Of a stretch of DNA of 31,428 nt, positions 907-30,453 are shown in pieces. The stretch spans positions 2,068,020 through 2,099,447 of the forward strand of contig FN649739.1 in assembly GCA_000310025.1 (NCBI GenBank), in the 5' to 3' direction. Position numbers and translations under genes: made by a program. The stretch comes from Ectocarpus siliculosus (lineage: Eukaryota; Sar; Phaeophyceae; Ectocarpales; Ectocarpaceae). The notes below the pieces were generated by a model that ran no database searches, was not told where the DNA came from, and was given only the letters and a program-made list of their open reading frames with translations. Numbering within the stretch: the first letter of the stretch is position 1; the number at the start of each line of letters is the position of its first letter.

Positions 907-2070
907 CCTCCCCCGCCCCCGCCCTTGCCCATGCCGTTCTTAGCGGCGGCCTGTTCGTCCACGATCTCCTTGAGGATCTCGGCCCGCTTCATGTAGCCCT
1001 CTACTCGCTTCATGATGGTTGCCTTGGCCATCTGCACCAACACCACACACACACACACACACAAAAGGCGTTAGCCGACAACAGCAGCGATTGCAAGGTG
1101 TCGTACATGTCGCGGTGGAAGGAAGAGAAGGCGGAAGAGAATTCCCGAGGCACGGAGAGAGAGAGAGGAGAGACGGCAAAGTCTAGCAGTGCAACGGCGA
1201 AAGAGTGTTTTTCTGCATTGTGTGTGTCGGCGCGCTGGTGCCCCTCTGGCCCACGAATTGAGTCCGCAGCAACCGCATGGCGCCCCAAGCTCTCTGATTT
1301 ACGCGGAACAAATCCTAACCCCAACCAGCCCAACCGCAAACCCAACTTACCCGATTGTATACTTTATCCAGTATGTGGCTTACTTAAAAAAACCCGTGTG
1401 TAGACTGCTGCGGGGAACACTCCTCGCTCTCAATGGTTGAAGGCGGAGCAATCATCCGATGCACAAAAAATTCATCAAATTCGACACTTTCAGGCGCCGT
1501 CGAACGGAATCTCACTGAGGCCTTGTGCCGCTGCGGTGGGCAGAGACGCCGATGACAAACATAAAAAAAATCACACAAGCTTGCCCTCTCTTCAACACTA
1601 CCACTGCTGCACGCAGACGTTCACGGACAGTTGCGCAACACTGGTGTTGTGACGACAGGCCATCATACCGAAGGTACTGCTGTGTGAAAATATGAAAAAG
1701 TTCTCCACTAACTGTGAGTCATCTGCTGGGCGTGTGCGACACAAGAACTTGTGCTCAGCTGTATCAACCGCAGCAGTTGACAACAAGCATGGTGAGTTGC
1801 ATGCACTCTCATTTCGACGAGCGGCTAACTCGTCATGTCGTGCCTCCGCAGCAGCGTTGGACCAAAAAAAAAAAAACTTGACGGAAACTTGAACAGGCGA
1901 AAAACAAAAAAACAGGAACTCACGGGGTTCGGCTCGTACTTCAGGCCGGTCATGAAGTATTCCAGCGATTTCTTGTACAGTCCAAGGGCTGTCTCGTAGT
2001 CCTGGTTGTTGTCGGCGGCGATGGCGTCCTTGACCATGTCAATGGCCTTCGGGATGAACTGCGAGTCCAT
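907..2070 (-). CDS. VPS4: VPS4-like AAA ATPase, N-terminal MIT-domain exons (partial)
   Basis: VPS4 is the AAA ATPase that disassembles ESCRT-III in endosomal sorting and membrane scission; its N-terminal MIT domain binds ESCRT-III tails. Exon 1 is 2070-1924 (49 codons, ATG at 2070, donor CCC|GTGAGT). Exon 2 is 1031-907 (acceptor GTGCAG|ATG, donor GAGG|GTGAGT), and the two join in phase 0. Exon 1 has the family pattern KAIDMVKDAIAADN, DYETALGLYKKSLEYF and LKYEPN. Exon 2 has the third MIT helix, RVEGYMKRAEILKEIV, then a Gly-rich linker. The (AC)n run at about 1044-1063 lies in the intron just before the exon 2 acceptor. The AAA domain should lie to the left but is not in the remaining 906 bases, so the gene either has a long intron running off the window or is truncated. 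I judge the family call strong and the completeness of the gene unknown. Confidence 0.85.
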
Positions 2071-3796
2071 GACTGATGATGAACCGCTTCACTGCTGAAG
2101 CGGAGTCGAATTTGGAATTTTCCAGCCTTCGTCACAAAAGACAGAATGAACTACTTGTTGTTCTAGCAACTCTCCTCTCCCCTTTCTCTCTCTGCACTGC
2201 AAATTAGAGCAATGCCCAAGGAGATCAAAGCGATAGCACCAGGGCTACACGCTTGCCACCTTCCTCCTGCTGGCTGCTAATGTGTGTCCTCTGCATCACA
2301 AACCCAGCTGCAGCTGGTCAAGGTGGGGGCTCCACGAGCAAGATTTTACAAGGAGGGAGGGTAGTTGTGCCCCTTCGCATGAAACTGCCGTCTTATTTGA
2401 TCATGGTTCTATCGTCGACGAGGACACGAGGACATGTGGTTTAGATTGAAGCTTTAGTCCCCGGGTTAAAACTGGGTTGTGGAAAATAGTCAACCGATCA
2501 CGAAAGAGGGTGTGGTCGCCTAGTACAGAAGGTCCCACTAGCTTCGTTTCCTCAGGTTCAAGATGCTCTCATGATTTGACGAAACGCGCGAAGCAAGACG
2601 TCGGCGCTATGACACGGAGTTTCATACAATCAGGACGTACGCTGTAGAACTCCCGGGGGCTGTACATACCACTAATGAACGTTTCGGTCCTATCTGCAGA
2701 GCTCCCTACAGCACTCAGCTCGGTTCTCATCTTCTCTGGCCACGTGTTCCGCGCCCTCGCGCAGGCCTGCTTTCCAACAGTCGGGGGGCGGGATAGTCTA
2801 TATTGGCATGGAAACAACCGAGCTGAATGGGACCCAAGGCAAGCATCATGTGTCTGTTGAGACGGACGGCGAAAAGAAACATGTGTCACAGCCTTAGACT
2901 AGATAGAACCTTCCCTGACTCGACCTAACTTGGTAGCAGGCTGCTGCTGCTGCAGCGAGCAGATTTGTTCATGAGTACAGCCCAGAATTAACATGTGAAG
3001 AAAATAAACATCATGTAGCATAGATAGATGATACCAATCTATCGACAGAGTCGTGTGGAATTTTGCGGTGAATCGATACACGCCGTGTGCATTTCGTCGT
3101 ATGGTTGGGGATGGTCAATCTATTCTATTCCCGGTGTACATCCTGAACGTGGGAAGTCCTCCCTCATCCGAGCTACATAGCGACATCACATTCCGCTGGT
3201 TATACTTTTCCATGCACAAGAGGATACAGTTGTGTAGTCTCGAGCTACCGGTTTGTTTTGTTTCGGCGAAGAAAAAATAATCAATGGCGCTGCCTTTACG
3301 TAGTACGGTGTTAGTGGAGATCGCTTGTGCGTAAGTTAACCCAAGGAAACGACGAACCATGCTTTCTCGCACAAAAACAATGTACGAAGTACGAAGTAGC
3401 GAAGGCCGCACCATAGAGAATTCTCTCTGTATGACCCCGCATCGGAGCTCTGGCAAGGCCGCAAGGTAGGTAGAAGCTGGGAGCACATGAATGAATACAA
3501 TGCATAAGCAACCGGTGCATGTGGCACGTTACACCGCCAAACAGGCACGTATATACAAGAGTCAAGGTTTACACTATTTTAGTTCCACGCCAAGGGCAGT
3601 AGTACAATTGATGGCCACACAACTCAACCAAACCTGGCAAACCTGTTGGTTTTCCACGTCCCTTTGTACGTGAAAAACAGCCGCAAGATGGGTATGGGAC
3701 TCTTTGTGGTCCACCCGACGTCACGCCCGGATAAACATAATCGATGTCGCCCTACTACAAGACGGAACAGCAGCAGCATCCCCAACGCCCACAGGC
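2071..3796. promoter_or_regulatory. Intergenic region between divergent VPS4 and B-box genes
   Basis: About 1.7 kb separates the VPS4 start (minus) from the first in-frame ATG of the large plus-strand gene. It should hold both promoters and 5' UTRs. Short open frames here on both strands lack recognisable motifs. I cannot point to a convincing TATA box or initiator, so only the position supports the regulatory label. Confidence 0.35.
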
Positions 3797-6700: not shown

Positions 6701-9700
6701 CGGTGACCCTGCGGGAAGAGGTCGGAGAGATGCTGAAGGACGTGGACGCCAGGGCGGGAAAGCCGGGGGTCGAGGCGGGGATTCCGTGGCGGAGGCGGTT
6801 AAGGTGTGGACAAACCATGCGTATTTTATTCAGGCCTGCTTTGTGTGTGAACTTGCGTGTTTTATTCAGACCTGCTTTGTGTGAAAACGGGGATCCGTGT
6901 GATGGCGTAGAGCTGTCTTTGCTGAGGAGACCAAGGCATGGTCAGCTTGGCGTTTCCTTCAGGCCTTCTCGTATGGCGTAGAGTTGTCTTTGTTGCTGCT
7001 GATGCTTGGTTGGTGTTGCTGCTGATATTCCATGTTGTTCTTGGACAAACGTGGCACGAAAGAAGTGACACGACCTTTCCTACTACCGTGCGTTCTTTCC
7101 TTCCTTCCAGCAAGAGCAAGAGCACCGCCGGCGAACGGGTGGACCAGTCGCGCCTCGTGGACAAGCTGTCTCGGCCAAAGAAACAACAGCTCCATCATCC
7201 CGCGGAAGAAGAGCGCCACACCCTCCCGCGCGAGGACCACACCGCGCGTCGTCCGACCCTCAAGAGGCAGGTCAAGAGCCAGGGCGACATTCCGGACTCC
7301 GCCGGCGATGCCGGCGATCGCCGCCACCACCCCCAACGACGCACGAGCGCCCCCGTGCCCGGAGGAGGCTTTCCGTCGCTGACGAGAGCACGGCGGCGCC
7401 GTCTGGAGCCGGCGGCGCCGGTGCGAGGAGCGCCGTGGCAGCGGACGGCCCTGCCGCGTGGAAAAAAGAGCGCTTGGCCGCCGCTCGACGACGAAGGCGG
7501 CGAAGGAACCGTTGCGAGCGATCACCATGCCAGCAACCCGTTTGGAAGGTATTTGGAAGGTAGTGGTGGTGGTGGTGGTGGTAGCGGTAGGTCTAGGGAA
7601 ACCATCTGCGCGATAGAAGCGATGCTGGAAGAGGGGGGCGGCGACAGCTACCTCCCGGCTCGCGCTCGCGACCTGCCCGAAGCGTTGGCCGTACTCGGCC
7701 CTCCCAAGCCGGAGTCCTCCTCGAAGGACAAAGCCAGAGGGAGTACCGCACGCAAGAAACTGCGACACCGCGGCGCGGGGAAGAAGAGCGGTGAAGACCC
7801 GGAGCGCGAAAACAACGGACATGGTACAGGAGGAGAGGAAAGCCACCGGACCACACGTGATGCGCTCGAAGCTTCTGCTGAGAACGGCTCGACGGGGAGA
7901 AGCGGGAACGATCCGGGGCCGAACACCGGCGGCGAGGGACACACACGAAAAACATCGCCGGGCTGGCCATCAGCGAAACCGGAAAGAGCGGAGGAAAGGT
8001 TTTTGCACCCATGGCAGCGAGCCCTCGAGGCTGACAAGAGGGCGGTCAACGCCAGGACGGGGGGACAGCACGAAGCTGCCCTGCTGGAGGAGCAGCGGTG
8101 CCGGAGGGAGGCCAGGAGGGCGGCCGCGGAATCGAAGGACTGTCGGAGGGCGGGCCGGAGGGTCGCCGCCCGCTTGGGCCGACAGCACGGCCGCCGCGGC
8201 CGCCGCCACCGCTCCGGCAAGAGCCGGGTCCACGGCAAGGGAGACAGGAAAATGGCGCCAGACCGCCCGGAAGGGAGCGAGAGCCGCGCGAAATTGAACG
8301 GCCAGGGGTACGAGGTCAGCTCGAGAGATAGAGAGGTTGTTCTTCACAGGTGTGGCGGCGACGAAGATGACGATGACTCCCTCCGCCAGTTGCGCGATGC
8401 CCTCGGCTGGGCACGGAAGACGCTCGAGGCTCTCATGAAACGGCTGAAAGATCGGGGGATCGCCATAGAAAGCGCTAGGGCTGCGGCTGCACGCGGAGGT
8501 GGTGGCCTTGGCGGGGCGGCCAAGGACTGGGAGATCGTGCGGGTGCTGAATAAACTCCGCAGACGCGTGGCGGCCTTCGAAGACGAAGGCATCTCCCTTG
8601 GTGTCAACAAGGCGACGACAGCAGAGGAGGGAGTCGCAGGAGCAGCGGAGGCCCGATCAAAGTGCGAAGCCGCCTGCGAGTCATTCGAGGCGGACTTTTG
8701 CCATCTGATCGACGAGCTCACCGCTACGGCAAAGGGGCTTCCGAGCCACCCGGATCTGCAGCTGCGCTCGACCTCGATCACCCACTGGGCATCGGAATCT
8801 AGTGGTAGCGTTCCTCCTGGCCCCGGAGGCGCCGCTGCCTCAGACCCGGCAAGCAGGACGACGTTTCGTTCGTTGAGCTTTGGCCTGTGTTCATCGTGCT
8901 CGGTCCTTCCCGTCGCAAGACGTTGCTTGGATTGTGACGGCGACGATAGGGACAGGTGCTCGAGCTGCTTCGTCAGGGAGCACCGCGACGCGGATCGGCA
9001 GAGACACCGCTTCCTGCGCATCAGTGGCTGCGGCAGGGAGGGCGGCGGAACCGTCGCGGGCCCCCGACGAGGAGCTGCAAGCGCCGAGAAAGGAGCGGTG
9101 CAGGAGGACAGCTCCGGAGGCGGCGCGCGGTGCTCCAGGTGCGGCGACCTCGCCGCCGCCCGGCGGTGCCGAGACTGCAGCGTGGACATGTGCGCCGCGT
9201 GCCACTTCCTCGCCCACCGTTCCCCGAGCAAGCGGTCTCACGTGACGGAGTTCGTCGGCGAGACGGCCGTGTCCATGCAGGAGGCCCTGCAATCTCGAAA
9301 CTGGGGCGCCGCAGCAGGATCAGCTGCCGCGCGGGAAATCTCGAACGACGGCGGGGAGGTCGCGGCCAAGGAGAGCGGGGCGTCTTCCTCTTCCTCTCCC
9401 TTCTCCTCCCCGTCCACGCCGCAAGCGTCCAGAAACGTCGGAAACAGCGGGAGCGACCGAGTTGATGCTGTCAGTCGTGAGGCACGAGAAGGGTGGGGGA
9501 GGGAATCGCCCGTGCCCGGGGAAGGGTCGTTCGGCAAGGGTGCGGCCCAGTCGCTCGCTCAAGTGCGAAGAACGATAGACGCCCCGGCAGTTCCTCCTCC
9601 CGGGCCCTCGCAGTCGTTGGGGGGAATTGGTTCTGGGCTTAGTGGAGCAACTGAGCATTTTGATGGTGTTGGTGGTGAGAGTGAGGACGTAAGCCGTGAT

Positions 9701-10225
9701 GATGCTCGACCGATTGATGTAGACCCATCGGCCGAGGTAGGTGTTGGTGGTTCAACATCGCTCACGGATGGAGACCACGGAGTACACCCACGCTTCGAAC
9801 CGCCGGGGGACGATTTTGTAGAGGAAGAGGCCGCCATTCCCAACGGCGACGGTTCTCCTGACGAGGTCATACACAGGGACGGTGCAGGACACTACGGGGG
9901 CGGTGGATGGAATGGCTGGGAGGAGGGGCAAGGAAGGGACGAACGTGGGAACGTGGATGTCGAAATACCCGAAGAAATCACCGGAGGAGATGGCGAACAT
10001 GGCCCTAGCGACTCAGCAACTCACAGTATTAATATCAAGGATGATGGCCGCAGCAGGGATACCCTTCGAGCTGGAGCAGGAGGGCGAGGGGAGGGCGCAG
10101 ACATGGCTGAAGATATGTTTGGAGGCCTGGAGGGCATTAAGGAGGAAGAGGGGCTAGAAGGGGAAGAAACGGACACTAGTTCAGAGGAGGATTCCGATAA
10201 TGACGATGACGATGACGAAGGAATG
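3797..10225 (+). CDS. Large low-complexity protein with CxxC motifs and tandem B-box-like zinc fingers
   Basis: Three exons join with matching phases: 3797-5746 (donor GAG|GTGAGA, phase 0), 6472-6803 (acceptor after a ten-C tract, CAG|GTT; donor AAG|GTGTGG, phase 2) and 7111-10225 (acceptor CTTCCTTCCAG; donor ATG|GTGAGA, phase 0). The joined frame is 1799 codons. Residue positions are approximate: a conserved-looking helical segment REIEAKLRRVVQWVQEVRRV (230-250), poly-Ser and poly-Gln runs, CSGDFC (500-505), FPLTFKSVGLARAEAKQG (598-615), and VAVCRACYDVYRRLDKLRE across the first splice (651-669). After these comes a long Arg/Gly-rich disordered stretch, then two Cys/His clusters with B-box spacing (from 1354 and 1435; C-x2-C-x7-8-C-x2-C ... 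C-x2-C then H), and an acidic tail ending in SEEDSDNDDDDDEG. B-boxes mediate protein-protein contacts. I do not recognise the whole protein. The start is the first in-frame ATG; an upstream exon is possible. Confidence 0.65.
6819..6996 (+). repeat. Two overlapping direct-repeat pairs in intron 2 of the B-box gene
   Basis: Within the 307-base intron 6804-7110, a 30-base unit at 6819-6848 recurs at 6855-6884 with two differences (period 36). A second unit of about 23 bases starting ATGGCGTAGAG at 6902 recurs at 6973 (period 71). These look like local slippage duplications and help explain why a spurious open frame runs through the intron. Confidence 0.6.
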
Positions 10226-10867
10226 GTGAGACCGTTTACCGTGCGTCGCTTGCTACTACGCTGCTCCTTTTGCCCATTCCACGTTGTTTTGCGGAGTCTA
10301 CCCCGTGCACTCTGTTGCTCCAGCCTATTTTCACTCAGCCTCTATCTCGCGGTAGTATCTGATGGCCGAGGTCGAACGGTTGGTGTGCGAGAGGCAAGTA
10401 CTTTCGGCGTGAGCGTGTCACGTATCACGATTCAATGGTTTACCCCGAACGACCATCGGGCGCGATAGCAGTTCGAGAGTACTTCGCACTCCCCCCCCCA
10501 ACACGCTAGTTGGTGGCTTGAAAGAAAGCTTGACGTACTTGGGCATTAACTTTTGTTGAAAAGCATGATAACCACTAGACCACTAGCCCGTGCTGACTAG
10601 TATCGCTAGCCCGCGCTGACTAGTGGTCTAGTGGTCATCGTGCTTTCAGCACTAGCTAATGTTGATTTTGGATACTATGGCAGTACCCAATACCTCTTGC
10701 TAATTCCGCACACCTTTGGCGCCCTCTAACAGCAAAGCTGCTAATACCTTTCTTTGTGCGCGTACACGGGCCCCTCAACCTTCTCGCCCTCCCCGCAAGT
10801 TAATCCGCCGATGCCTGTCTTCATTTTTCGACCCCCCCCCGCGTCAAATTTAACGACCTCGTCGAAG
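10226..10867 (+). other. Probable last intron of the B-box gene
   Basis: The stretch starts with a good donor (GTGAGACCG, the same nine bases as the donor at 5747) and contains stops in all plus frames and a large hairpin. Whether it ends at 10867 is uncertain: AAG acceptors at 10867 and 10894 keep the phase, while the better CAG sites at 10913 and 10919 do not. Confidence 0.4.
10563..10643. repeat. Long inverted repeat (hairpin) with internal direct repeat
   Basis: The arms 10563-10586 and 10620-10643 are reverse complements over 24 bases with two mismatches. Imperfect pairing extends further out (GTTGAAAAGC against GCTTTCAGC). The loop contains two near-identical CTAGCCC-GTGCTGACTAGT units. 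The structure is rich in CTAG and resembles a very small foldback or MITE-like element, or a structured RNA segment in the intron. Confidence 0.75.
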
Positions 10868-20914: not shown

Positions 20915-21005
20915 ATGGCTTCCTCTGGAAAGTACCCGAGGAAGGTGACGGTCAGGTTCAAGAAGCTCGAGGTGAGGAAGAGTCCACGGAGACCGAGAGT
21001 AGAGA

Positions 21006-21038
<33 letters not shown>

Positions 21039-24000
21039 GAGTCACCCCAGGGCAGTTGGATGAGTCGACAGACTTGCGTTATTTCGGAGAACGTAGATAG
21101 CGGTCTGGTTGCGTGTGTGTTGTCCTGGGGCCCATGACCTCATCTCCCTGCACCCCGTGCTCGGCACCTCTTCGGTGTCCTCGCGTGTTGACAACTTCTC
21201 CCGGAGGCTAACGCTGTAGTGTGAGGGAGCTCGGATGGTGTTGTTGTAGTCTACACCAGCTACACCAGTACGACCTCGCATCCTCTGCTGGTTGGTAACA
21301 CCCACCAGCTGTAGGATGTACGTAAGACACACCAAACAGCAGTGGGCGCTGGTGGCAATACGTCCGGCAGGCAGAAGAGACCACAGGGTTGTCCGGGTTA
21401 TAGATGTGGTATAAAGCCAGCATCCGCACCCGAGCTCTTTGTGTTCGAACGTACGGCAAGTCGTCCAGCACCTCAACAGCTCAACTGCACACCAGCCTGG
21501 CGGGGTAGACGCGAACCGCATCCTTTTGCCGTGCTATTGTAGCGCCAGGCCAAACGTTTGGGTGACAACTGCAGCAGTATCGCCGCATCCATGTGTAAGC
21601 AGTGGTAAAAATTGTCTTCTTGGTAGAGCCCGTTGGTCTACCGTGTCTTGTGTATGGGTCGTGGCGGTGCTGATGTGTTTCAACAAAAGCAGCGGGGCCG
21701 GGGGGTTTCAATTTCTGATTTTTTTCCAGCTATGCACAACTGCCACACCAAAGTCGGAACCAGCTTTCATCTGACCCTCCGCAGACACACCTTACTTGCA
21801 CAACTACCGGCCTCGGTGTTCATGAGAGAGCGTCTTACACTTTTATCTTCACAATGAAGGGCTTTTACCTCCGCGGCACCTTGTTTACTCCTTTTGGCAC
21901 AGTACAGCGGGAGAGTGGGCCCTGCCATAACCTTCCACCCAGCTGCTGTGACGTCAAGCAGAGGTCCTCTGTGTGTACGTGTGTATTTGTACCCATTCAA
22001 CCGATCCATCGTGTGTGGGGTAAAATATGTTTCCCCGCATAGGGTCTACGGTCTACGGATAGCCAGCCCGAAGGCTTGCCTCAGGCATGCGCAGCAAGGC
22101 TCGTCGCAGGAGAATAATGATGGTGGGGCAGGCACAAGAAGGAGGCGTTTGTCTGGCACCAGACCGCATGCCTGAGATGCCTGATATATGTACATCGTAG
22201 ACATATGTATGTACATCGTGGACATGTGTGCGTGCATCATACATGTGTAAGGACGTTTGCCCGAGATTCAAACTGCTGTATGCATAGAAGCTGCGAAGTA
22301 CTTACAGCTGTGTACCATATATTTCATATTTCCGAGTATGGCGACGGGTCATGTATCCGGCTTATCGTCGTGGCTCTCTTGATCGTGCTGCCTGGACCTG
22401 CCTCGAATAGTGTAAGAGCATTCAGGCCCCACAAAACACTGTCTCACGCATATGTCTGATAGAATCAAGTCAGGCATATTCCTGCTGAGAAGCTCGAAAC
22501 AAGAAAAAAGGGCTCTTTCGAAACTCACGCATGTCTGATCGGGCTGAGCTTGAAATTTGAAAAAATTGTCTGTCCCCGCGGGTTGTGAGTATCACTGGTA
22601 TCACTTACGGGATTCAAAACCGAGCGTCGCTAGCGAAACATGCTGGCGTCTTTACGCACGTTAGCGATGGCTGCCGCTCGTCGTGTGTGTGCTTCGTTAA
22701 TTTAGCATCGGGATGATTATTAAGCGAACGAGAGTGTACGTCTTCGGCCGCGGTGCATGTACAACGCTGCTGGCATCACTCATCGGTCACTACTGCACGA
22801 AGGGCGCGAAAAATCTAGACTCGATGACCAGTTTCCAGCAACTCATTTCTTATTTCCACACCACTTTTGTAAAATACTGCAAATCAAACAACTCCGATTT
22901 TTTTATTTTTGTACGTATTTTTTCATTCTGTCCATTGGCAAAAGTATCCAATTACAACGAGCGAAAACCCAACCTAACCGCCGACGTCGAAACCGTTTGT
23001 GTTGCGCCGTACAGGAGAAGTCGCTTTGGAACTACGTCTCCCTCCACAGCATCGACCTCGAAGGTCAGATACGCCCAAGCAAAGAAGAGCTGGAGATCAT
23101 CTGCGCAGAGTGAGTCTAGGGTGTGCGCGCACGCGGGCGCGCGCGAGGAGAGGGCTAATGTTAAAACAGCTAAAAAGACGCTCATACAAAACGCTCATAC
23201 ATTGTACATCTCTCACCTTCGTAGCTGAGTACGGTATGTGCGTGAACCTTCGTAGCTGAGTACAGTTCGTGCGTGGACCGTTTCCTCGGGGCTGGGAATC
23301 GGTGTGATGTAGGGGGGTTGCGCTTACCTGTCGCTGTTGTCTCTCCTGGATGGTATTCATTCCTTGTACTGTATCGAGCAATTAGTGTCGCAGCTTGCTG
23401 ACGACTTTCGTGCGAATGATGACCGTGAACACGTGCATCTCATAGCATACGATATCAACCCATCATCACATGTTAGCATGACTTAGTGAGGCATGTGATA
23501 GACATATTAACGGGTGATAACGTTCACTTTAACAGGCTTTATTATCTTCCGTACACATGGGGGGTGTTAAGTAAACACCGGGTGGGTTGCAACGTTCGCG
23601 AAAACGTGCCACGGAGAAACATGTTGAAGTTGTCTCTTCTTCGTAGATGCGGCATAACCGCCGCCTCTTCGAAACCTCTAGAGGGCAAGCAGGGAAGTGT
23701 CCGATACTTCGATTCCTATTTATGCCGCCCATACCCCTAGCGCCGCAACCACCGGACAGTGACGTCCCATCATAGTGTTTGTGAAGATTCTACGCGCAGC
23801 CGCCAAAACACTAACTCCTTTTTGTATTTTGTATGTGTAGCTGACCGTTGAGTTGTTTGACCAATCACCGTCCACCCTCGTCCCTTTCAAGACGGAACAC
23901 CACTCCGCTCGTCCATAGTCCTCATGGATTCTTACAACAGTTTTTTTCTGTGTGTTTTCCGCCTTCCGAGACTTGCACAAGTAGGTGTGTGCTCGCAGGC

Positions 24001-27000
24001 CGGGGGGGGGGGGGCGCAAGTCACGAAGCAACGCGTTGAGCTGCTACGTGGTATTTGTACAGATGTTGTGCGGTTTCCCCCCTACTACTAACCAACACGC
24101 CCCGTACACAGGGGACAAAAAAAGTAATAGATTTAAAGAAACGAAATTAATCCATCTAAAAGAGAATAACTTTATAGAAGCTGAAAAAGAAGAAAGGAGT
24201 TATAGACACAAACTTTTTAAGTTGCGAACTAATAGAGAGATTTTACGATATAAATTTTTTAAAAATAGCATCTTTAAATTATTATTAAATTTATGTATAG
24301 CGTCAGTAGGATTTGAACCTACGACCTTCAGGGCATGAGCCTGATGAGCTAAAGGATGTGTTCCTCCGCAGCCGGGTGGCGTTTGCTCGGCTAGCTCTAA
24401 GCTCAGCCGCAACGTTGCAGGCTGCCGTTGTGCGGCGTTGTCCGCAGCAACAAGGACAACAAGAGAGATTGAGTGGAGTGTTTTCGACCGGATACGAGGG
24501 CATCACGGAGTACGATGTCATGAGTAATTTCCTATTTAGCTACAGAGCACTGCCGGTTTCAGTTTTAGCTCACCGAGTGCCCCTGTAGACTCATTTATTT
24601 CCACCAGCGTGCGTGTAACGAGTTACTGTTAACCTTCGTCGGTGGAGGACCTATCGCACCGCCTGGGGGGACATCCGTCGCGTGCTGCGTGTAGCTGAGT
24701 GCTCTGCTGCCTGTACCTTTTTCTGTCCGAAAACTGCGCCTTTTTCGCGCCGTCCTACGTGCACGTACATCGCGAGTAGCACATGTGCAAGCTAGCGCCT
24801 TGATGGCACCTTTCTGACGTGCTTCGGGGTCGTGCGTGTTTGTGTTTGTCTTTTCGGCTCCGAGACGTGCCGCAAAATGGCAAAACAAAACAAAAAAAGG
24901 TCAAAATCTTCCCTCCACGACCTAACGCCAGCAATGCGCATGTGTTCACTGGACCACCCGCCTTCGTTCTCCATTGAGTAGTTTGTTGAAGCGATCGGAG
25001 GTCGAGTCGAGTTGGGGCTGTCTATGTGAACCATCACCCTCATCCTACGCTCTGTGTTTTTGGGATTATTCCTGCGCTTGTGTTGCGTCAGGCACTTCGC
25101 TCAGTGGGAGGTGGACGAGGAGAAGGTGGTGGAGTCATGGATCGCTCACATGGACACTGACCGGGACGTCCGAGAACTGGGCGCCGTCAAAAAGTGAGGG
25201 AAAAAAAAAAAAAAAACGCCTCCTTTTTGCACGCTCTCCGTGATTGCGTGCTCGAACTTGACGCATTCAAGTTGGTTTGAAGTAGCGGTGCGGGAGACCT
25301 GCTAGTCCACTCTCGGTCACGGAATTAAGGAATAATAAATACACACACAGAAAGACTACCCATTCGAGATATACCCACAGTCGAACGGAATACTACAGCA
25401 GTTGGGTGGTGGCGAGTGCATGTTCGAGTGCGAGACGCTTGTATGGCATCAGGGAGATACACCAGCCCCAGCTTATTTATGTTCCTGAGGGATTCTGGAT
25501 TCGTGTGGAATTTTTCAATTGCATGGGCTTTCGCACTATCTCAGCCTATGCTCCTGAGGGATTCTGTTTTGTTTGTAATTCATTTATTGCACCACCCCAA
25601 GCTCTTTAGCGCTGTCCCCGTTTGCTGATCCGTACCATAAGTGTCCGTAGCGGTACCGAGCTCTGTCGTATCGTCCCGTCCCTCGCCGACCATGCAGGCG
25701 CAACAACTCGGAGTTTTCTCCGTACGGTCCATATGGGCACGGAGAAGCTCCCGCGTTCGGGGGCGGTAGGGGGGGAGGGTTTGGGGGAAGCGGTTGCCCC
25801 TTGGACATGGAAGGCGGCGTCCGCGGAGTCGTGCCTTCGGGGGAGCAGGTGAGATTCATTAGTTGAATCCGTACATCGTGGTACGGTATACCGTTGTGGG
25901 CGACGGCTACTGGCTTATCCTTCAGCTCGGGGCGGTTCTTGATCAACACGCTGACGAGAAAGCAGTCCATGCCCACGTGAAGGATCACTCGGACCTCCCC
26001 GCGACCTAGCCTCCCACCGTATTACCGCCACGGGGTGATGGTATATCGGCAACACTACAAGCAGTGATATGTGCGTAGGCCACGAGCGGCGTTGATGCTA
26101 GCAACGGAGCCGCGCGGGCTGGCGGTTTTTCGCCGCCGTCGACAACCGTGTGTCCCATGTTCCATGGTATTCTTGGAGGTGTATTTCACGAACATTGGTT
26201 GTGGACAGAGAGGGGATGGGCAACTAGCATAGCGTTAGGCGATGCTGCTTTTTGACAGGCCAGGGTAACCTGTGGCAGAGCGAGTGATAGTTCGGACGAT
26301 ATTGCATGATGGACGGTGGTTGTAAACGGATTTTTTTTTTATACAATATATTTTTATTAGTGCTTCACGCCTCTTTTCGTGCGATGTCCTGCTTGGCTTT
26401 TCATCAACAGCCTCCCCGATTTCGGCACAATCTTGTTTCCCGGTTATTTCCTCCTCCCGCTCCTCCTGCGCATGCGTGTGCCCCCCCCCCCCCCCCCCAC
26501 CTTGTCAATTCTCTAACCACTTCCGCATGGGTTTACATGAGGGACACCCCCCCCCCTCTTGCTCTCCTTTCTTTTTGTGTCTGGTGGTGTATTTCCATCA
26601 TCAAACGGCGTGCGGCGGGGGGGTATCGTATCGATTGATGGCGGCAGGTAGCGGCGAAGGTTACCAACACGAACGAAAACGGATCTTGGATTCTGGCGGA
26701 GATAATCCGGTAAGCGGGGGTTTATGTTCAGACCGTGGGTTACATGCGGTACGTTAGATAACACACCCCCTGGACCGATTTTTTTTGTAAAGATCGGTTG
26801 CTCTGCAGAGAACAACAAGCAGCCTCGGCGCCGTCTCGTGGAGAGTTTTTTCCGAACACGTATCACTTGACTTACGGGCCTTCTTGGTCTGTGGCAAGTG
26901 CTCGTCCGGTGGTTCTTTGAGTTCTCATCTGCTTCAAGTACATGTGTATTTAACCCCCCCCCCCAGTCGAGATGTTTGAGGCATGGAATAGAGAGGAGAG

Positions 27001-28902
27001 GACGGTAGCGGTACTGGGGAGTAGAAAGTGGTTTGAAAAGGCGGGAAGGGACATCGGTAGGATAGACAGACTAGGGAAGACATTTTTGAGCCATCTTTGG
27101 CAAAGTAGGAAGGAACGATTGGCCATCGGTGATCGGTCCTGTGGGAACAATGCTCCGTCCTCTCGAGGACGCGTGGTCAATGGTCTAACCGCTAAGGCAT
27201 GCAAAACATAAGAGTACGCCCCCCCCCAGTCGCCGAATCCCCCCGGTGTTCGCCACCGGGGTTGGGTTTTCGTCGCTTGGCAACGAGGTTGTAAAACAAG
27301 CCAATTCACTTCGTGAACTCGGCAACCAGGTTACCGTTTTTTTTTTTACCTCTGTTTTTTTTTTGCGGTAACCATAATGGTGGTCGAGTAGATCATGTTG
27401 TGCGGGGTTGAGAACCCTCACTCCGCGCAAGGGGGATGATCGCACCACGTTGTGTTAAAAATGGTCAAGCATCCTCGAGGCAGTTACTCAGCAGTGCTTA
27501 TCACTTTCTCTGGAAGTGAAAGCACCAGAAAATAAATTAAGTCATACGCAGCTGTCATCCGTACGCAAGGACGTAAGCACAGGATGCCGAACACCCTTAG
27601 CAGGATGCAGCTCACCCTTCATGCGACCCGCCGAATACCTCACGACGCTTCGCGCTTGGTGATGTAAGAGCCTCGTCCGGTGAGAACCCAAGGTAGCGGA
27701 AAAGGGCAAAACACGAGCAGGGAAGCTGCACCCAATACTCGCAAACCGGCACCTCGATACACGCATCAAATTGGCGATTTTGAAGAGCGTAATCGTACCG
27801 CCGCTAGAGTACGCCGGAGAAGTATGGGAAAGAAATAAGAAGGTAGTGAAAGAACTCGAGGCGGCGCAGATGAAAGCAGCGAAAATCATCCTAGGATGCT
27901 CCAAGCGCACAAGTAATGCAGCCATCAGGGCAGAATTGGGGATCCAATCCCTACGGTCGGGAAGAGACGTAAGGAAGCTGACATGGCAGTATCGCATGTG
28001 CGGGATGGGAGAGGAGAGGTTGCCGAGAATAGTATGGGAGGCGAAGAGGGCAAACAAAAAGAGGGGTAGACAACCCACGGAATGGGTCAAGGTTGTAGAG
28101 GACGTATGGAAGGGGTTGGACATCGACGAAGATGGAAACGCTGTAAACGGAGGGTCTACAGGGGTTCAAGGAGAAGGTATCTGTTGCTTGTGCCGGGAGA
28201 GAAAAACAGAATCTAAGGAAAGAAACTGAGGATAAGGAGGGTCTAGAAGTGTACGGAATGTTGAAAGAAGGAGGGTTCAAGGATTACCTACATGGAACAA
28301 TGGATGCAGGGACAAAGCTTAAGGTCAAATTCAGGACCGGGGACATAGGCCTTCGAGAACGTCGACGAAGACATAGGACGGTAGACGACGAAGACGACAG
28401 GTTCAAATGTGATTGCGGCTTCGAATGCGAAGACCGTGTTCATGTAGTCGAGGAATGTCCGTGGCACGAAGAGGAGAGGGAAGTGTACATGACTGAGCTG
28501 GGAAACATAGAAGGGAGGTACCGGGAGATGTTTGAGGCATGGAATATAGAGGAGAGGACGGTAGCTGTACGTGGGAGTAGGAAGTGGTTTGAAAAGGCGG
28601 GAAGGGATATCGTTAGGATAGACAGACTAGGGAAGACATTTTTGAGCCACCTTTGGCAAAGTAGGAATGAACGATTGGCCATCGGTGATCGGTCCTGTGG
28701 GAACAATGCTCCGTCCTCTCGAGGACGCGTGGTCAATGGTCTAACCACTAAGGCATGCAAAACATAAGAGTACCCCCCCCTCCCCCCCCCCCTCTCTCTC
28801 TTTGTCTCGATCTCTCGATCTCTCGATCTCTCTCTTTCCGTTGTTCGCTCGTGCGTTTGTTGGCTCGGTTGCTGGCGCCATGGGCGACGACGACGACGAC
28901 GA

Positions 28903-28933
<31 letters not shown>

Positions 28934-30453
28934 GTGGAACTGCAACAGCTACCTCGCGGGTCGTGCTTGCTACGAGGTGAAGGACGCAGATGACCCCCTG
29001 AAGCAGATAGAGGTGCCCGACAACAACGTCATCCGCCTCAGGGAAGGCGGCCAAGGCTTCGCCAAGGGGGACGACGTGAGTTGTCCTCTTACGCGCTTGT
29101 TCAAAACTATGCCATCTCCTTGTTGTGATGCTTCTCTTCTCCTTGCCCGTAAGACGCTCTCCGTCAGAGGTACGGCTATGCCTTGTTGCCAAGGCGGGAA
29201 CGATGTGAGACGTTCTACGCGCTTTTATGTTGTTTCGAGCGAAACATCTTTACCATCATCACCACCACCAACAACAACAACAGGGTAATGGTTGGCCACA
29301 CGTACCGCGCGGGTCTTATCCGCCGGACCCGACGCTGATGAAACAGAACAAAGCGTGTGGTACAACACATTTAGCGCCCGCGTTTAAGAAACCCCAATTT
29401 GGGTTCGAGCCTCAATTTCTCCCTTCTTCACCACGTGCTCGAGCATAGGCCACATAGGCGACAATATAGAGTTATTCGTAGGATCCGATTTATTTATGTT
29501 TCTTAACCCTATTTTTCTTTCTTTTTCGTGAAGAGTTTCGAGTCAATTTTCTTAACGTTTTGTTTCTTTATCGCCGGCGCTAACTGCACACTTTTGTGGC
29601 CGACGCGGCATGGACAGGTACTGGCGGTGTTCCCGGACACAACGAGCTTCTACCGGGGCACCATCAGCAAGCAACCCGTTCGGAAGGCGGGGCTGGTCGC
29701 CGAGGTGAACCTTTGCGACTAGGAAGTACATTCACACACAGCCCAAGACGAGGTATCCAAGAAAAAATGGTTTACCCCCCTCTCTCTCTTTCCCGCGGAT
29801 TCTAAAATGGCCTGCTGTTTTGGAGCTTGGGAAAGGAGATACTGGCGTCGCTCTCATGGCCTGTTGTAGCAAGAGCATATGAACACAGGGTGGGTGGTCA
29901 TTTGATGTTGATGCCACGGCTGCACCCCAGGTCAGGTCGTGGATGTTTGGCGCCGTTGCCTGTTTTGAATTCCTACCCCCCCTTGCGACTCGCCGAATAC
30001 CTCACGGCGCTTCGCGCTTGGTGATGTGAGAGCCTGGTCCGGTGAGAACAGGCGTGCTCCGTCCCGACTTTTTATAGGGACACGGTCAATGGTCTAACGA
30101 CAATGACATGCACGATTATGAGTACACCCACCCACCGCCGTCGCAATAGCCGCAGGGCAAAGCCCGGGGAAATATTCAGTGATCAGTCATACGCTACGTT
30201 ATATTCACCCACGATCTGTCCGTCTTCTTTTTTTCCTTCGCCCTTGTTGTTAACCGTTTGCGTTGTCGCTCACACTGCCGCCCGTGCTGTTCCCGGGACT
30301 TGCGCTCATAAACAACTGTCTTACGAACCGAACCGAACCGAACCGAAACAGCTTGTGGTTCAGTTCGAAGACGACGCGGATCAAGACACGGGGAAGACCC
30401 CCCATCGCAGGATCAACTCCAAGCTCGTCCTCGCGCAGCCTGGCGGGCACTAG
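20915..30453 (+). CDS. SGF29: SAP30-like / SGF29 tandem-Tudor fusion protein
   Basis: Eight exons join in one 261-codon frame: 20915-20971, 23015-23109, 25092-25193, 25698-25848, 26648-26709, 28949-29075, 29618-29704 and 30352-30453 (TAG). Every junction is GT-AG with matching phase. Exons 1-3 (residues 1-85) fit SAP30, the SIN3-HDAC subunit: VTVRFKKLE, SLWNYVSLHSIDLEGQIRPS, KEELEIICAEHF. Exon 4 is a Gly-rich linker ending VVPSGEQ. Exons 5-8 (136-260) fit the SGF29 tandem Tudor that reads H3K4me2/3 in SAGA: VAAKVTNTNENGSWILAEII, YEVKDADDP, DDVLAVFPDTTSFYRGTI, LVVQFEDDAD. Expected pocket residues are present (D168, D170, Y210, F232; human Y238 corresponds to F203, numbering from memory). The usual SGF29 N-terminal coiled coil is absent. 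The ATG has a good context (CGCCATGG). The exon 3 donor overlaps an in-frame TGA at 25195, so an 85-residue SAP30-only protein is the alternative. Family calls are strong for SGF29 and good for SAP30; the fusion is inferred from phase and lack of another start. Confidence 0.75.
22080..22245. repeat. Inverted repeat plus short tandem repeat in intron 1
   Basis: CTCAGGCATGCG at 22080-22091 and its exact reverse complement at 22165-22176 flank about 70 bases. Immediately downstream, 22187-22245 holds about three degenerate copies of a unit of roughly 20 bases containing TGTACATCGT and GGACATRTGT. It may be a small foldback element followed by slippage repeats. It lies in intron 1 of the SAP30-SGF29 gene. 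Confidence 0.6.
24116..24351. other. Organellar DNA insertion (probable NUMT)
   Basis: A sharply AT-rich block sits in intron 2 of the SAP30-SGF29 gene and begins abruptly near AAAAAAAGTAATAGATTT. It ends in a tRNA-Met fragment on the minus strand. Base composition and the bacterial-type tRNA sequence are unlike everything around it. An open Lys/Asn/Leu-rich frame crosses the block on the plus strand and may be part of an organellar gene that I cannot name. Mitochondrial origin is more likely than plastid because the tRNA differs from the plastid initiator tRNA I know, but this is not certain. Confidence 0.75.
24298..24351 (-). tRNA. trnM: Truncated organellar tRNA-Met(CAU) pseudogene
   Basis: On the minus strand the fragment reads from the D-loop/D-stem 3' side (TTTAGCTCA) through an anticodon arm (stem TCAGG/CCTGA, loop CTCATGC, anticodon CAT) and a T-arm (GTAGG, TTCAAAT, CCTAC) to the 3' acceptor strand TGACGCTA. 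The 5' acceptor strand and D-stem 5' half are missing, because unrelated nuclear sequence starts just beyond 24351. It cannot fold into a full cloverleaf. Confidence 0.85.
24352..25091 (+). other. Remainder of intron 2; unassigned open frame
   Basis: A plus-strand frame from the tRNA fragment to 24588 is rich in Arg, Ala and Ser (SRVAFARLALSSAATLQAAV, then STGYEGITEYDV), and an acceptor-like TTCCTCCGCAG precedes it at 24371. It could be spliced to the exon ending at 23109 in the right phase, but it breaks the SAP30 domain, whereas the exon at 25092 continues it exactly. I leave it unassigned, perhaps a cryptic exon. Confidence 0.3.
25321..25395 (-). repeat. Dispersed repeat, copy B (inverted relative to copy A)
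   Basis: This is the reverse complement of the block at 17661-17745 over about 70 bases, with small indels. It lies in intron 3 of the SAP30-SGF29 gene. A second local feature follows: TATG[TC]TCCTGAGGGATTCTG occurs twice, near 25478 and 25548, about 70 bases apart. Confidence 0.75.
25892..26005 (-). pseudogene. REV1: REV1 (Y-family DNA polymerase) exon fragment, antisense in intron 4
   Basis: On the minus strand the frame reads RVILHVGMDCFLVSVLIKNR, then PELKDKPVAVAHN. This matches the first palm segment of REV1 (pattern HVDMDCFFVSV..RNRP.L...PVAV), the translesion dCMP transferase. An acceptor-like CTAG at 26006 and a donor-like G|GTATAC at 25891 frame it as a single exon. The first Asp of the DMD motif, a metal-binding catalytic residue in Y-family polymerases, is Gly (GGC instead of GAC). 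No other REV1 exon (BRCT, remaining palm, fingers, little finger) is visible on either side, and the piece lies antisense within an intron of another gene. I therefore call it a gene fragment rather than a working gene. A real REV1 gene with very long introns is less likely. Confidence 0.75.
26969..27217 (+). mobile_element. 5'-truncated LINE copy 1 (3' end only)
   Basis: About 250 bases match 28525-28773 with roughly ten differences (about 96% identical by eye). The segment covers the last codons of the LINE ORF (EMFEAWNREERTVAV, SRKWFEKAGRDIGRIDRLGK, SHLWQSRKERL) and the 3' tail ending CATAAGAGTAC, followed by a C run. It starts abruptly after a C-rich stretch (26953-26964). It lies in intron 5 of the SAP30-SGF29 gene, in the same orientation as the gene. 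Confidence 0.9.
27230..27375. repeat. Short hairpins between the LINE copies
   Basis: CCCCGGTG (27241-27248) pairs with CACCGGGG (27254-27261) around a TTCGC loop. Further on, GGTTACCG (about 27329-27336) is the exact reverse complement of CGGTAACC (about 27366-27373), enclosing two T runs. No gene is evident. These are probably parts of repeats or chance palindromes. Confidence 0.5.
27622..27687 (+). repeat. Dispersed 66-bp repeat, copy 1
   Basis: From TGCGAC to GGTGAGAAC this matches 29984-30049 with only a few substitutions, including CTCGCCGAATACCTCACGGC and GCTTCGCGCTTGGTGATGT. It abuts the 5' end of LINE copy 2, as the other copy abuts a LINE-like tail, so it may be part of the LINE itself or the head of a composite SINE. 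Confidence 0.8.
27688..28773 (+). mobile_element. 5'-truncated, frameshifted LINE (non-LTR retrotransposon) copy 2
   Basis: The segment encodes the end of a LINE reverse transcriptase ORF: HLDTRIKLAILKSVIVPPLE followed by YAGEVW, then an RT-thumb-like LEAAQMKAAKIILGCSKRTS and ELGIQSLR. Near the C-terminus is a Cys/His cluster CDCGFECEDRVHVVEECPWH like those of many LINE ORF2 proteins. The reading frame changes once, around 28145-28165, so no intact protein is made; upstream catalytic RT motifs and any endonuclease are absent. The tail ends CATAAGAGTAC followed by about 20 mostly C residues. The insertion sits in intron 5 of the SAP30-SGF29 gene in sense orientation, with a second partial copy just upstream. 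Non-LTR class is well supported; the clade cannot be named from this fragment. Confidence 0.88.
28774..28850. repeat. Poly-C and (CT)n/(GATCTCTC)n microsatellite
   Basis: A C-rich run follows the LINE tail directly. It is succeeded by CT repeats and three to four units of TCTCGATC. It precedes exon 6 of the SAP30-SGF29 gene and could serve as an extended pyrimidine tract, although the acceptor at 28948 is closer to a CAA/GAC repeat. Confidence 0.8.
29984..30125 (+). repeat. Composite repeat: 66-bp repeat plus diverged LINE tail
   Basis: 29984-30049 matches 27622-27687. It is followed directly by 30055-30125, which aligns with the LINE tail (TGCTCCGTCC, ACGGTCAATGGTCTAAC, ATGAGTAC) without any RT coding sequence. 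A head joined to a LINE-derived tail is the usual build of a SINE, so this may be a SINE mobilised by the LINE at 27688-28773. It lies in intron 7 of the SAP30-SGF29 gene. Confidence 0.6.

What the first reader, a model, noticed from the sequence alone, without database searches (positions are those of the whole stretch)
20915..30453. SAP30-like SIN3-binding domain fused to an SGF29 histone-methyl reader
Eight GT-AG exons with matching phases link a SAP30-type domain (SIN3-HDAC complexes) to the SGF29 tandem Tudor (SAGA, H3K4me reader) in a 260-residue protein. The SGF29 part has no start codon or N-terminal coiled coil of its own between 25198 and 25697, while the SAP30 exon donor fits its phase. 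Seen: the motifs, splice sites and phases. Known: each module's usual complex. Inferred: that they form one protein, which would tether a methyl-lysine reader to a deacetylase scaffold.
Basis: partly seen in the sequence, partly recalled or inferred. Interest (0 to 1): 0.88.

Follow-up and report, generated by a model that had tools for sequence, protein, structure and literature searches.

The report
SAP30–SGF29 fusion genes, three copies
An unnamed eukaryote genome carries three related genes that each appear to join a histone-deacetylase anchor domain to a reader of methylated histone H3, so that one protein could connect an "active gene" mark to a machine that turns genes down.

Summary
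Confirmed and strengthened. The eight exons join at GT-AG borders with matching phases into 260 residues that pass Pfam's cut-offs for SAP30_Sin3_bdg (28.6 bits; cut-off 22.2) and SGF29_Tudor (88.9; cut-off 23.8). Two diverged paralogs in the same genome (contigs C23, C25) have the same order and strand and pass both cut-offs. In C25 the SAP30 C-terminal half and the whole linker lie in one 442-base exon that splices in phase into the tudor, which removes the stop/start ambiguity of the window there. A separate SGF29 gene without detectable SAP30 sits on C457. No SAP30 match was found outside the fusions, but these searches also missed the window's own. All three tudors keep the H3 Ala1 and H3K4me residues, with Phe at 238, tolerated in human SGF29. 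SIN3 is present. Best reading: a SIN3-HDAC subunit with a built-in H3K4me2/3 reader, working like the Pho23/ING PHD. Function is inferred; no transcript, and no relative outside this genome, was seen.

The parts
20915..20971 (+). exon 1, start ATG, N-terminus MASSGKYPRKVTVRFKKLE (start of the SAP30-like domain)
   Evidence: aligns with exon 1 of C23 and C25
23015..23109 (+). exon 2, SAP30_Sin3_bdg, first part; phase-2 donor
25092..25193 (+). exon 3, SAP30_Sin3_bdg, C-terminal half; donor gtgagg, phase 2 (read through it gives an apparent TGA at 25195)
25698..25848 (+). exon 4, Gly-rich linker and first residues of the tudor (PSGEQ); in-frame Met at 25807
26648..26709 (+). exon 5, SGF29 tudor 1 (VAAKV..WILAEII)
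28949..29075 (+). exon 6, SGF29 tudor 1 end with the D194/D196 equivalents (KDADD)
29618..29704 (+). exon 7, SGF29 tudor 2, equivalents of cage residues 238 (Phe) and 245 (Tyr) (VFPDTTSFY)
30352..30453 (+). exon 8, SGF29 tudor 2 end, F264/D266 equivalents (QFED), stop TAG

Best explanation
The locus is one gene encoding a SAP30-type SIN3-binding domain, a Gly-rich linker and the SGF29 tandem tudor, and it belongs to a family of three such genes in this genome. Shown: exon structure, domains, paralogs, conserved reader residues, presence of SIN3. Inferred: the SAP30 domain docks on the PAH3 domain of SIN3, the flexible linker lets the tudor reach out, and the tudor binds the H3 N-terminus methylated at K4, so that SIN3-HDAC is held on or steered to nucleosomes with H3K4me2/3. 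From the SAP30 position it would do what the PHD fingers of Pho23/Cti6 do in yeast Rpd3L.
For: Spliced models with matching phases at three loci. Both Pfam domains above cut-off in 3 of 3 joined proteins: SAP30 28.6/58.2/56.5 bits, SGF29 88.9/84.8/56.9 bits. C25 exon 3 (L008:3479-3920) runs from the SAP30 C-half to ..DTAEQ and joins VAAYV in phase 0, as window GEQ|VAAKV does. Its linker scores +0.40 per codon in frame with 0 stops in 122 codons, against +0.07 with 1 stop and -0.03 with 4 stops in the other forward frames. A profile of the three SAP30 parts has SAP30 (2ld7, E 6.5e-5) as its best PDB match; the tudor profile finds SGF29 (3lx7 and others, E 1.9e-16), and so does the window tudor alone (E 4e-8). 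D194, D196, Y245, F264 and D266 equivalents are present in 3 of 3 fusions and residue 238 is Phe; human Y238F binds H3K4me3 about as well as wild type, 3.5 against 3.1 uM (PMC4589357, passages). SIN3: three PAH matches and a Sin3_corepress match on C15. In yeast, Sap30 engages PAH3 of Sin3-I and Rpd3L is thought to read H3K4me3 through the Pho23/Cti6 PHDs (PMC10224958, passages).
Against: No RNA evidence. Taken alone, the window and C23 do not exclude two genes: in-frame Met at window 25807; C23 exon 4 begins with ATG. The window's SAP30 domain is the weakest of the three and lacks the GPYFPFxRxETYP start of the other two; searched by itself in the PDB it did not find SAP30 at E<=10 (1 hit, an unrelated chain at E 0.97). 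One antisense frame of C25 exon 3 scores nearly as well as the sense frame (+0.35, 1 stop), and over all exons the in-frame score is the best of the three forward frames in only 16 of 22. No relative was found outside this genome, though those collections hold viral and prokaryote DNA. ING gave no match at E<=0.001 and Sds3 none at E<=1, so a complete Rpd3L-type complex is not shown.
Confidence: 0.65

Rival explanations
1. Two neighbouring genes, SAP30 then a tudor-only SGF29, duplicated together as a block and never fused.
For: Apparent TGA at 25195 and an in-frame Met at 25807 followed by a good donor (GTGAGA) in the window. In C23, exon 4 starts with ATG and exon 3 can run on to a stop at 3417.
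Against: In C25 one exon carries the SAP30 C-half and the linker and joins the tudor in phase. The 846-base C25 gap has 41 ATG-to-GT candidates in the right phase; only 3 of them, sharing one donor (GTAGGA), are of the GTRRG type, and by eye none resembles SGF29. The window TGA is a by-product of a phase-2 GTGA donor, as at exon 2. No stretch resembling an SGF29 N-terminal region was seen before these tudors, unlike C457 (by eye).
Confidence: 0.1
2. The fusion is real, but the protein acts in SAGA/ADA as an SGF29 variant, the SAP30-like part being a relic or a new docking surface.
For: In the window copy the tudor scores far better than the SAP30 part (88.9 against 28.6 bits).
Against: The fusions lack an SGF29 N-terminal region (recalled as the part that binds Ada3), while C457 offers a separate SGF29 with what look like its own N-terminal exons (by eye). 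The SAP30 domains of C23 and C25 score 58.2 and 56.5 bits.
Confidence: 0.15
3. The window copy is a decaying member of the family (weak SAP30, shortened N-terminus, introns grown by insertions), so that only C23 and C25 make working fusions.
For: Lowest SAP30 score, missing GPYFPF motif, three of seven introns of about 2 kb, one of them with reverse-transcriptase-like fragments (by eye).
Against: The joined frame is open, all introns are GT-AG and the tudor residues are intact.
Confidence: 0.1

Closest known systems
SAP30 / Sap30 (SIN3-HDAC, Rpd3L)
   Same: SAP30_Sin3_bdg domain; the profile of the three copies matches 2ld7 in the PDB
   Different: No zf-SAP30 hit was listed for any of the 3 proteins; carries a tandem tudor at the C-terminus
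SGF29 (SAGA/ATAC)
   Same: SGF29 tandem tudor with conserved H3A1 and Kme residues
   Different: A SAP30 domain and linker stand where SGF29 has its own N-terminal region; Phe at position 238 and Asp at 240 in all three fusions
Pho23/Cti6 and ING1/2 (PHD-type H3K4me3 readers of SIN3-HDAC)
   Same: Expected role: an H3K4me reader on the SIN3 scaffold through a flexible tether (PMC10224958, passages; ING part partly recalled)
   Different: Unrelated reader fold (tandem tudor, not PHD) and a different attachment point (SAP30)

Membership tests
SAP30 | SAP30_Sin3_bdg domain above the curated cut-off | tested here: met
   28.6, 58.2 and 56.5 bits against 22.2 in 3 of 3 proteins
SAP30 | N-terminal zf-SAP30 of animal proteins (recalled; not universal) | tested here: not met
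   no such family listed at E<=1 for 3 of 3 proteins
SAP30 | binding to SIN3 PAH3 | not testable with these tools
   SIN3 gene present on C15; binding untested
SGF29 | SGF29 tandem tudor | tested here: met
   88.9, 84.8 and 56.9 bits against 23.8; PDB SGF29 E 1.9e-16
SGF29 | H3K4me cage and H3A1 pocket residues (D194, D196, 238, Y245, F264, D266) | tested here: met
   kept in 3 of 3 fusions, with Phe at 238; residues from passages of PMC4589357 and PMC10630320
SGF29 | own N-terminal coiled-coil region (recalled) | tested here: not met
   SAP30 domain and linker stand there in 3 of 3 models; no coiled-coil program was run
SGF29 | membership of SAGA/ATAC | not testable with these tools
   no complex data

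The most novel reading that the evidence does not exclude
In this lineage SAP30 exists only fused to the SGF29 reader, so every SIN3-HDAC complex that uses SAP30 carries an H3K4me2/3 tudor, in three versions, while SAGA keeps a separate SGF29: by gene fusion the same reader module serves both an activating and a repressing complex.
Probability: 0.35. Interest if true: 0.75.

Novelty: new variant of a known kind. Interest (0 to 1): 0.6.

Why it matters
It would put a reader known from the activating SAGA complex on the repressive SIN3-HDAC scaffold. It offers a concrete test of how H3K4 methylation can lead to deacetylation, and of how chromatin complexes swap reader modules in evolution. Three diverged copies suggest that the arrangement has been kept.

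Tried and rejected
Reading the TGA at 25195 as the end of a SAP30 gene: rejected as a by-product of a phase-2 GTGA donor. Treating the open frame of C25 exon 3 as sufficient proof: not done, because the region is GC-rich and other frames also stay open for long stretches; splice phases and codon scores were used as well. Candidate first exons for a separate SGF29: with a restricted donor list none in the C25 gap, one in the window (25807-25848) and many in the C23 gap; with any GT, 41 in C25 and 52 in the window. A tree of the tudors (7 rows) is unresolved: 0 of 4 inner branches starred, fused-group support 39/21, so a single origin of the fusion is not shown by it.

The fourth tudor locus, C33, keeps the cage residues, but beyond about 4.6 kb upstream of its first tudor exon found here the sequence reads N. 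In the readable part the best SAP30 match is E 0.040 with a stop inside, in a repetitive stretch, which I take as chance; whether C33 has a SAP30 domain is undecided. Relatives outside the genome: one viral-contig scan and one genome-contig scan gave none. Human-type ING PHD search: two partial PHD matches, on C11 and C17, so absence of ING is not claimed.

Literature: SAP30 with Ectocarpus gave 0 papers. The other listings seen (10 of 10, 20 of 21, 10 of 303, 10 of 1,866, 10 of 4,894) show no paper that by title concerns such a fusion. The papers listed hold no SGF29 and those no SAP30, so those two searches say little. Structure prediction was not run because the spliced protein cannot be read from contiguous DNA.

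Full report
What is there. The eight proposed exons exist at the stated places, all introns are GT-AG with consistent phases (0,0,2,2,0,2,0,0 at the exon starts), and they join to 260 residues. Pfam reports SAP30_Sin3_bdg at residues 19-68 (28.6 bits, cut-off 22.2) and SGF29_Tudor at 133-256 (88.9 bits, cut-off 23.8), and no other family at E<=1. In the PDB the window tudor alone finds SGF29 (E 4e-8); the window SAP30 part alone finds no SAP30 at E<=10, while a profile of the three copies finds it (2ld7, E 6.5e-5).

Paralogs. A search of the window's own genome with SAP30_Sin3_bdg gave 2 matches at E<=0.001, on C23 and C25, and 3 at E<=10, the third being the next exon of the C25 gene. SGF29_Tudor gave 5 matches at E<=0.001: C457, C23, C25, C33 and the window. 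On C23 and C25 the tudor match lies about 4 kb downstream of the SAP30 match on the same strand. I fetched 10 kb at each of the four other loci and modelled C23 and C25 by eye from open frames, homology and splice sites. C23 gives seven exons and 568 residues, C25 seven exons and 366 residues, all introns GT-AG and all phases consistent. Both joined proteins pass both Pfam cut-offs. The SAP30 parts of C23 and C25 are 39% and 35% identical to the window's, the tudors 46% and 43%. Intron 1 has the same place and phase in all three; intron 2 (phase 2, before HF) and the phase-0 junction EQ|VAA are shared by the window and C25. Other introns differ in place.

One protein or two genes. The TGA is what any phase-2 donor beginning GTGA produces; the exon 2 donor does the same in the middle of the SAP30 domain. 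C25 settles the matter as far as sequence can: L008:3479-3920 is one exon that starts with the SAP30 residues HFAAWRINEESIMRSF, runs through about 120 linker codons and ends DTAEQ at a donor in phase with the tudor exon. Against codon usage trained on two long open frames elsewhere in the window (1,889 codons, themselves only presumed genes), with the introns of the three genes as background, the linker scores +0.40 per codon in frame, against +0.07 and -0.03 in the other forward frames, which hold 1 and 4 stops; one antisense frame of the whole exon scores +0.35 with 1 stop. The score is a weak tool for short exons: over the 22 exons of the three models the in-frame score is the best of the forward frames in 16. 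The 846-base gap of C25 contains 41 ATG-to-GT candidates for a separate first exon in the right phase; 3 of them, sharing one donor (GTAGGA), are of the GTRRG type, and by eye none looks like SGF29. The same count in the window is 52, including the one from 25807 with donor GTGAGA. C23 alone would not decide, since its exon 4 begins with ATG.

The rest of the family. C457 has SGF29 tudor exons with the human-like YPQTT sequence and, upstream, open frames that look like an SGF29 N-terminal region and linker (by eye). tblastn of the three SAP30 parts against 13 kb there gave nothing better than E 0.56. C33 has tudor exons, but from about 4.6 kb upstream the sequence reads N, so it is undecided. 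A search with the C23 SAP30 part found C23 and C25 exons and two insignificant matches (E 0.64 and 0.78). These searches work exon by exon, score only the best candidates, and missed the window's own SAP30 exons, so absence of a free-standing SAP30 is suggested, not shown.

How it most likely works. SIN3 is encoded on C15: three of the four PAH matches and the only Sin3_corepress match (E 4.5e-34) lie there on one strand. In yeast Rpd3L, Sap30 engages PAH3 of one Sin3 copy, and H3K4me3 is read by the PHD fingers of Pho23 and Cti6, which are flexibly tethered (PMC10224958, passages read). Human SGF29 binds H3K4me2/3 with a cage of Y238, Y245, F264 and D266; Y238F leaves affinity for H3K4me3 nearly unchanged (3.5 against 3.1 uM), and Y245F weakens binding 4- to 4.5-fold (PMC4589357, passages). 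D194A, D196A, Y245A and F264A are described as interaction-defective (PMC10630320, passages). In the alignment the three fusions keep D194, D196, Y245, F264 and D266 and have Phe at 238 (I placed the residue numbers by counting along the human sequence). The simplest mechanism is a SIN3-bound arm that reads H3K4me2/3. Binding, complex membership and direction of effect are inferred.

Known or new. Both domains are well known; the combination is the new part. In the searches made I saw no paper on it by title, but four of the listings were partial, and the papers listed do not name the protein searched for. Automatic domain databases of eukaryote proteomes could not be consulted and may already list the architecture. 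I rate it a new variant of a known kind.

Noticed in passing
window 24115-24359: AT-rich island (GC 0.28 against 0.55 for the window) in intron 2, ending in a stretch that looks like the end of a tRNA gene (GGATTTGAACC); possibly organelle DNA inserted in the nucleus. ARAGORN and Rfam (gathering threshold) report no RNA there.
   Followed up: partly
window 26954-28767: Intron 5 carries reverse-transcriptase-like open frames and two near copies of one stretch (MFEAWN..EERTVAV..KWFEKAGRD), as from LINE-type insertions (type by eye and recalled).
   Followed up: no
window 1825-2088, - strand: Open frame that resembles the N-terminal MIT domain of VPS4 (by eye).
   Followed up: no
window 6926-10468, + strand: 1,180-codon open frame with two Cys-rich clusters that look like B-box-type zinc fingers (by eye).
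   Followed up: no
L010:5828-7366 (C33): A further SGF29-type tudor gene with AVYVDTTSFY; from about 4.6 kb upstream the sequence reads N, so a fourth fusion cannot be excluded.
   Followed up: partly
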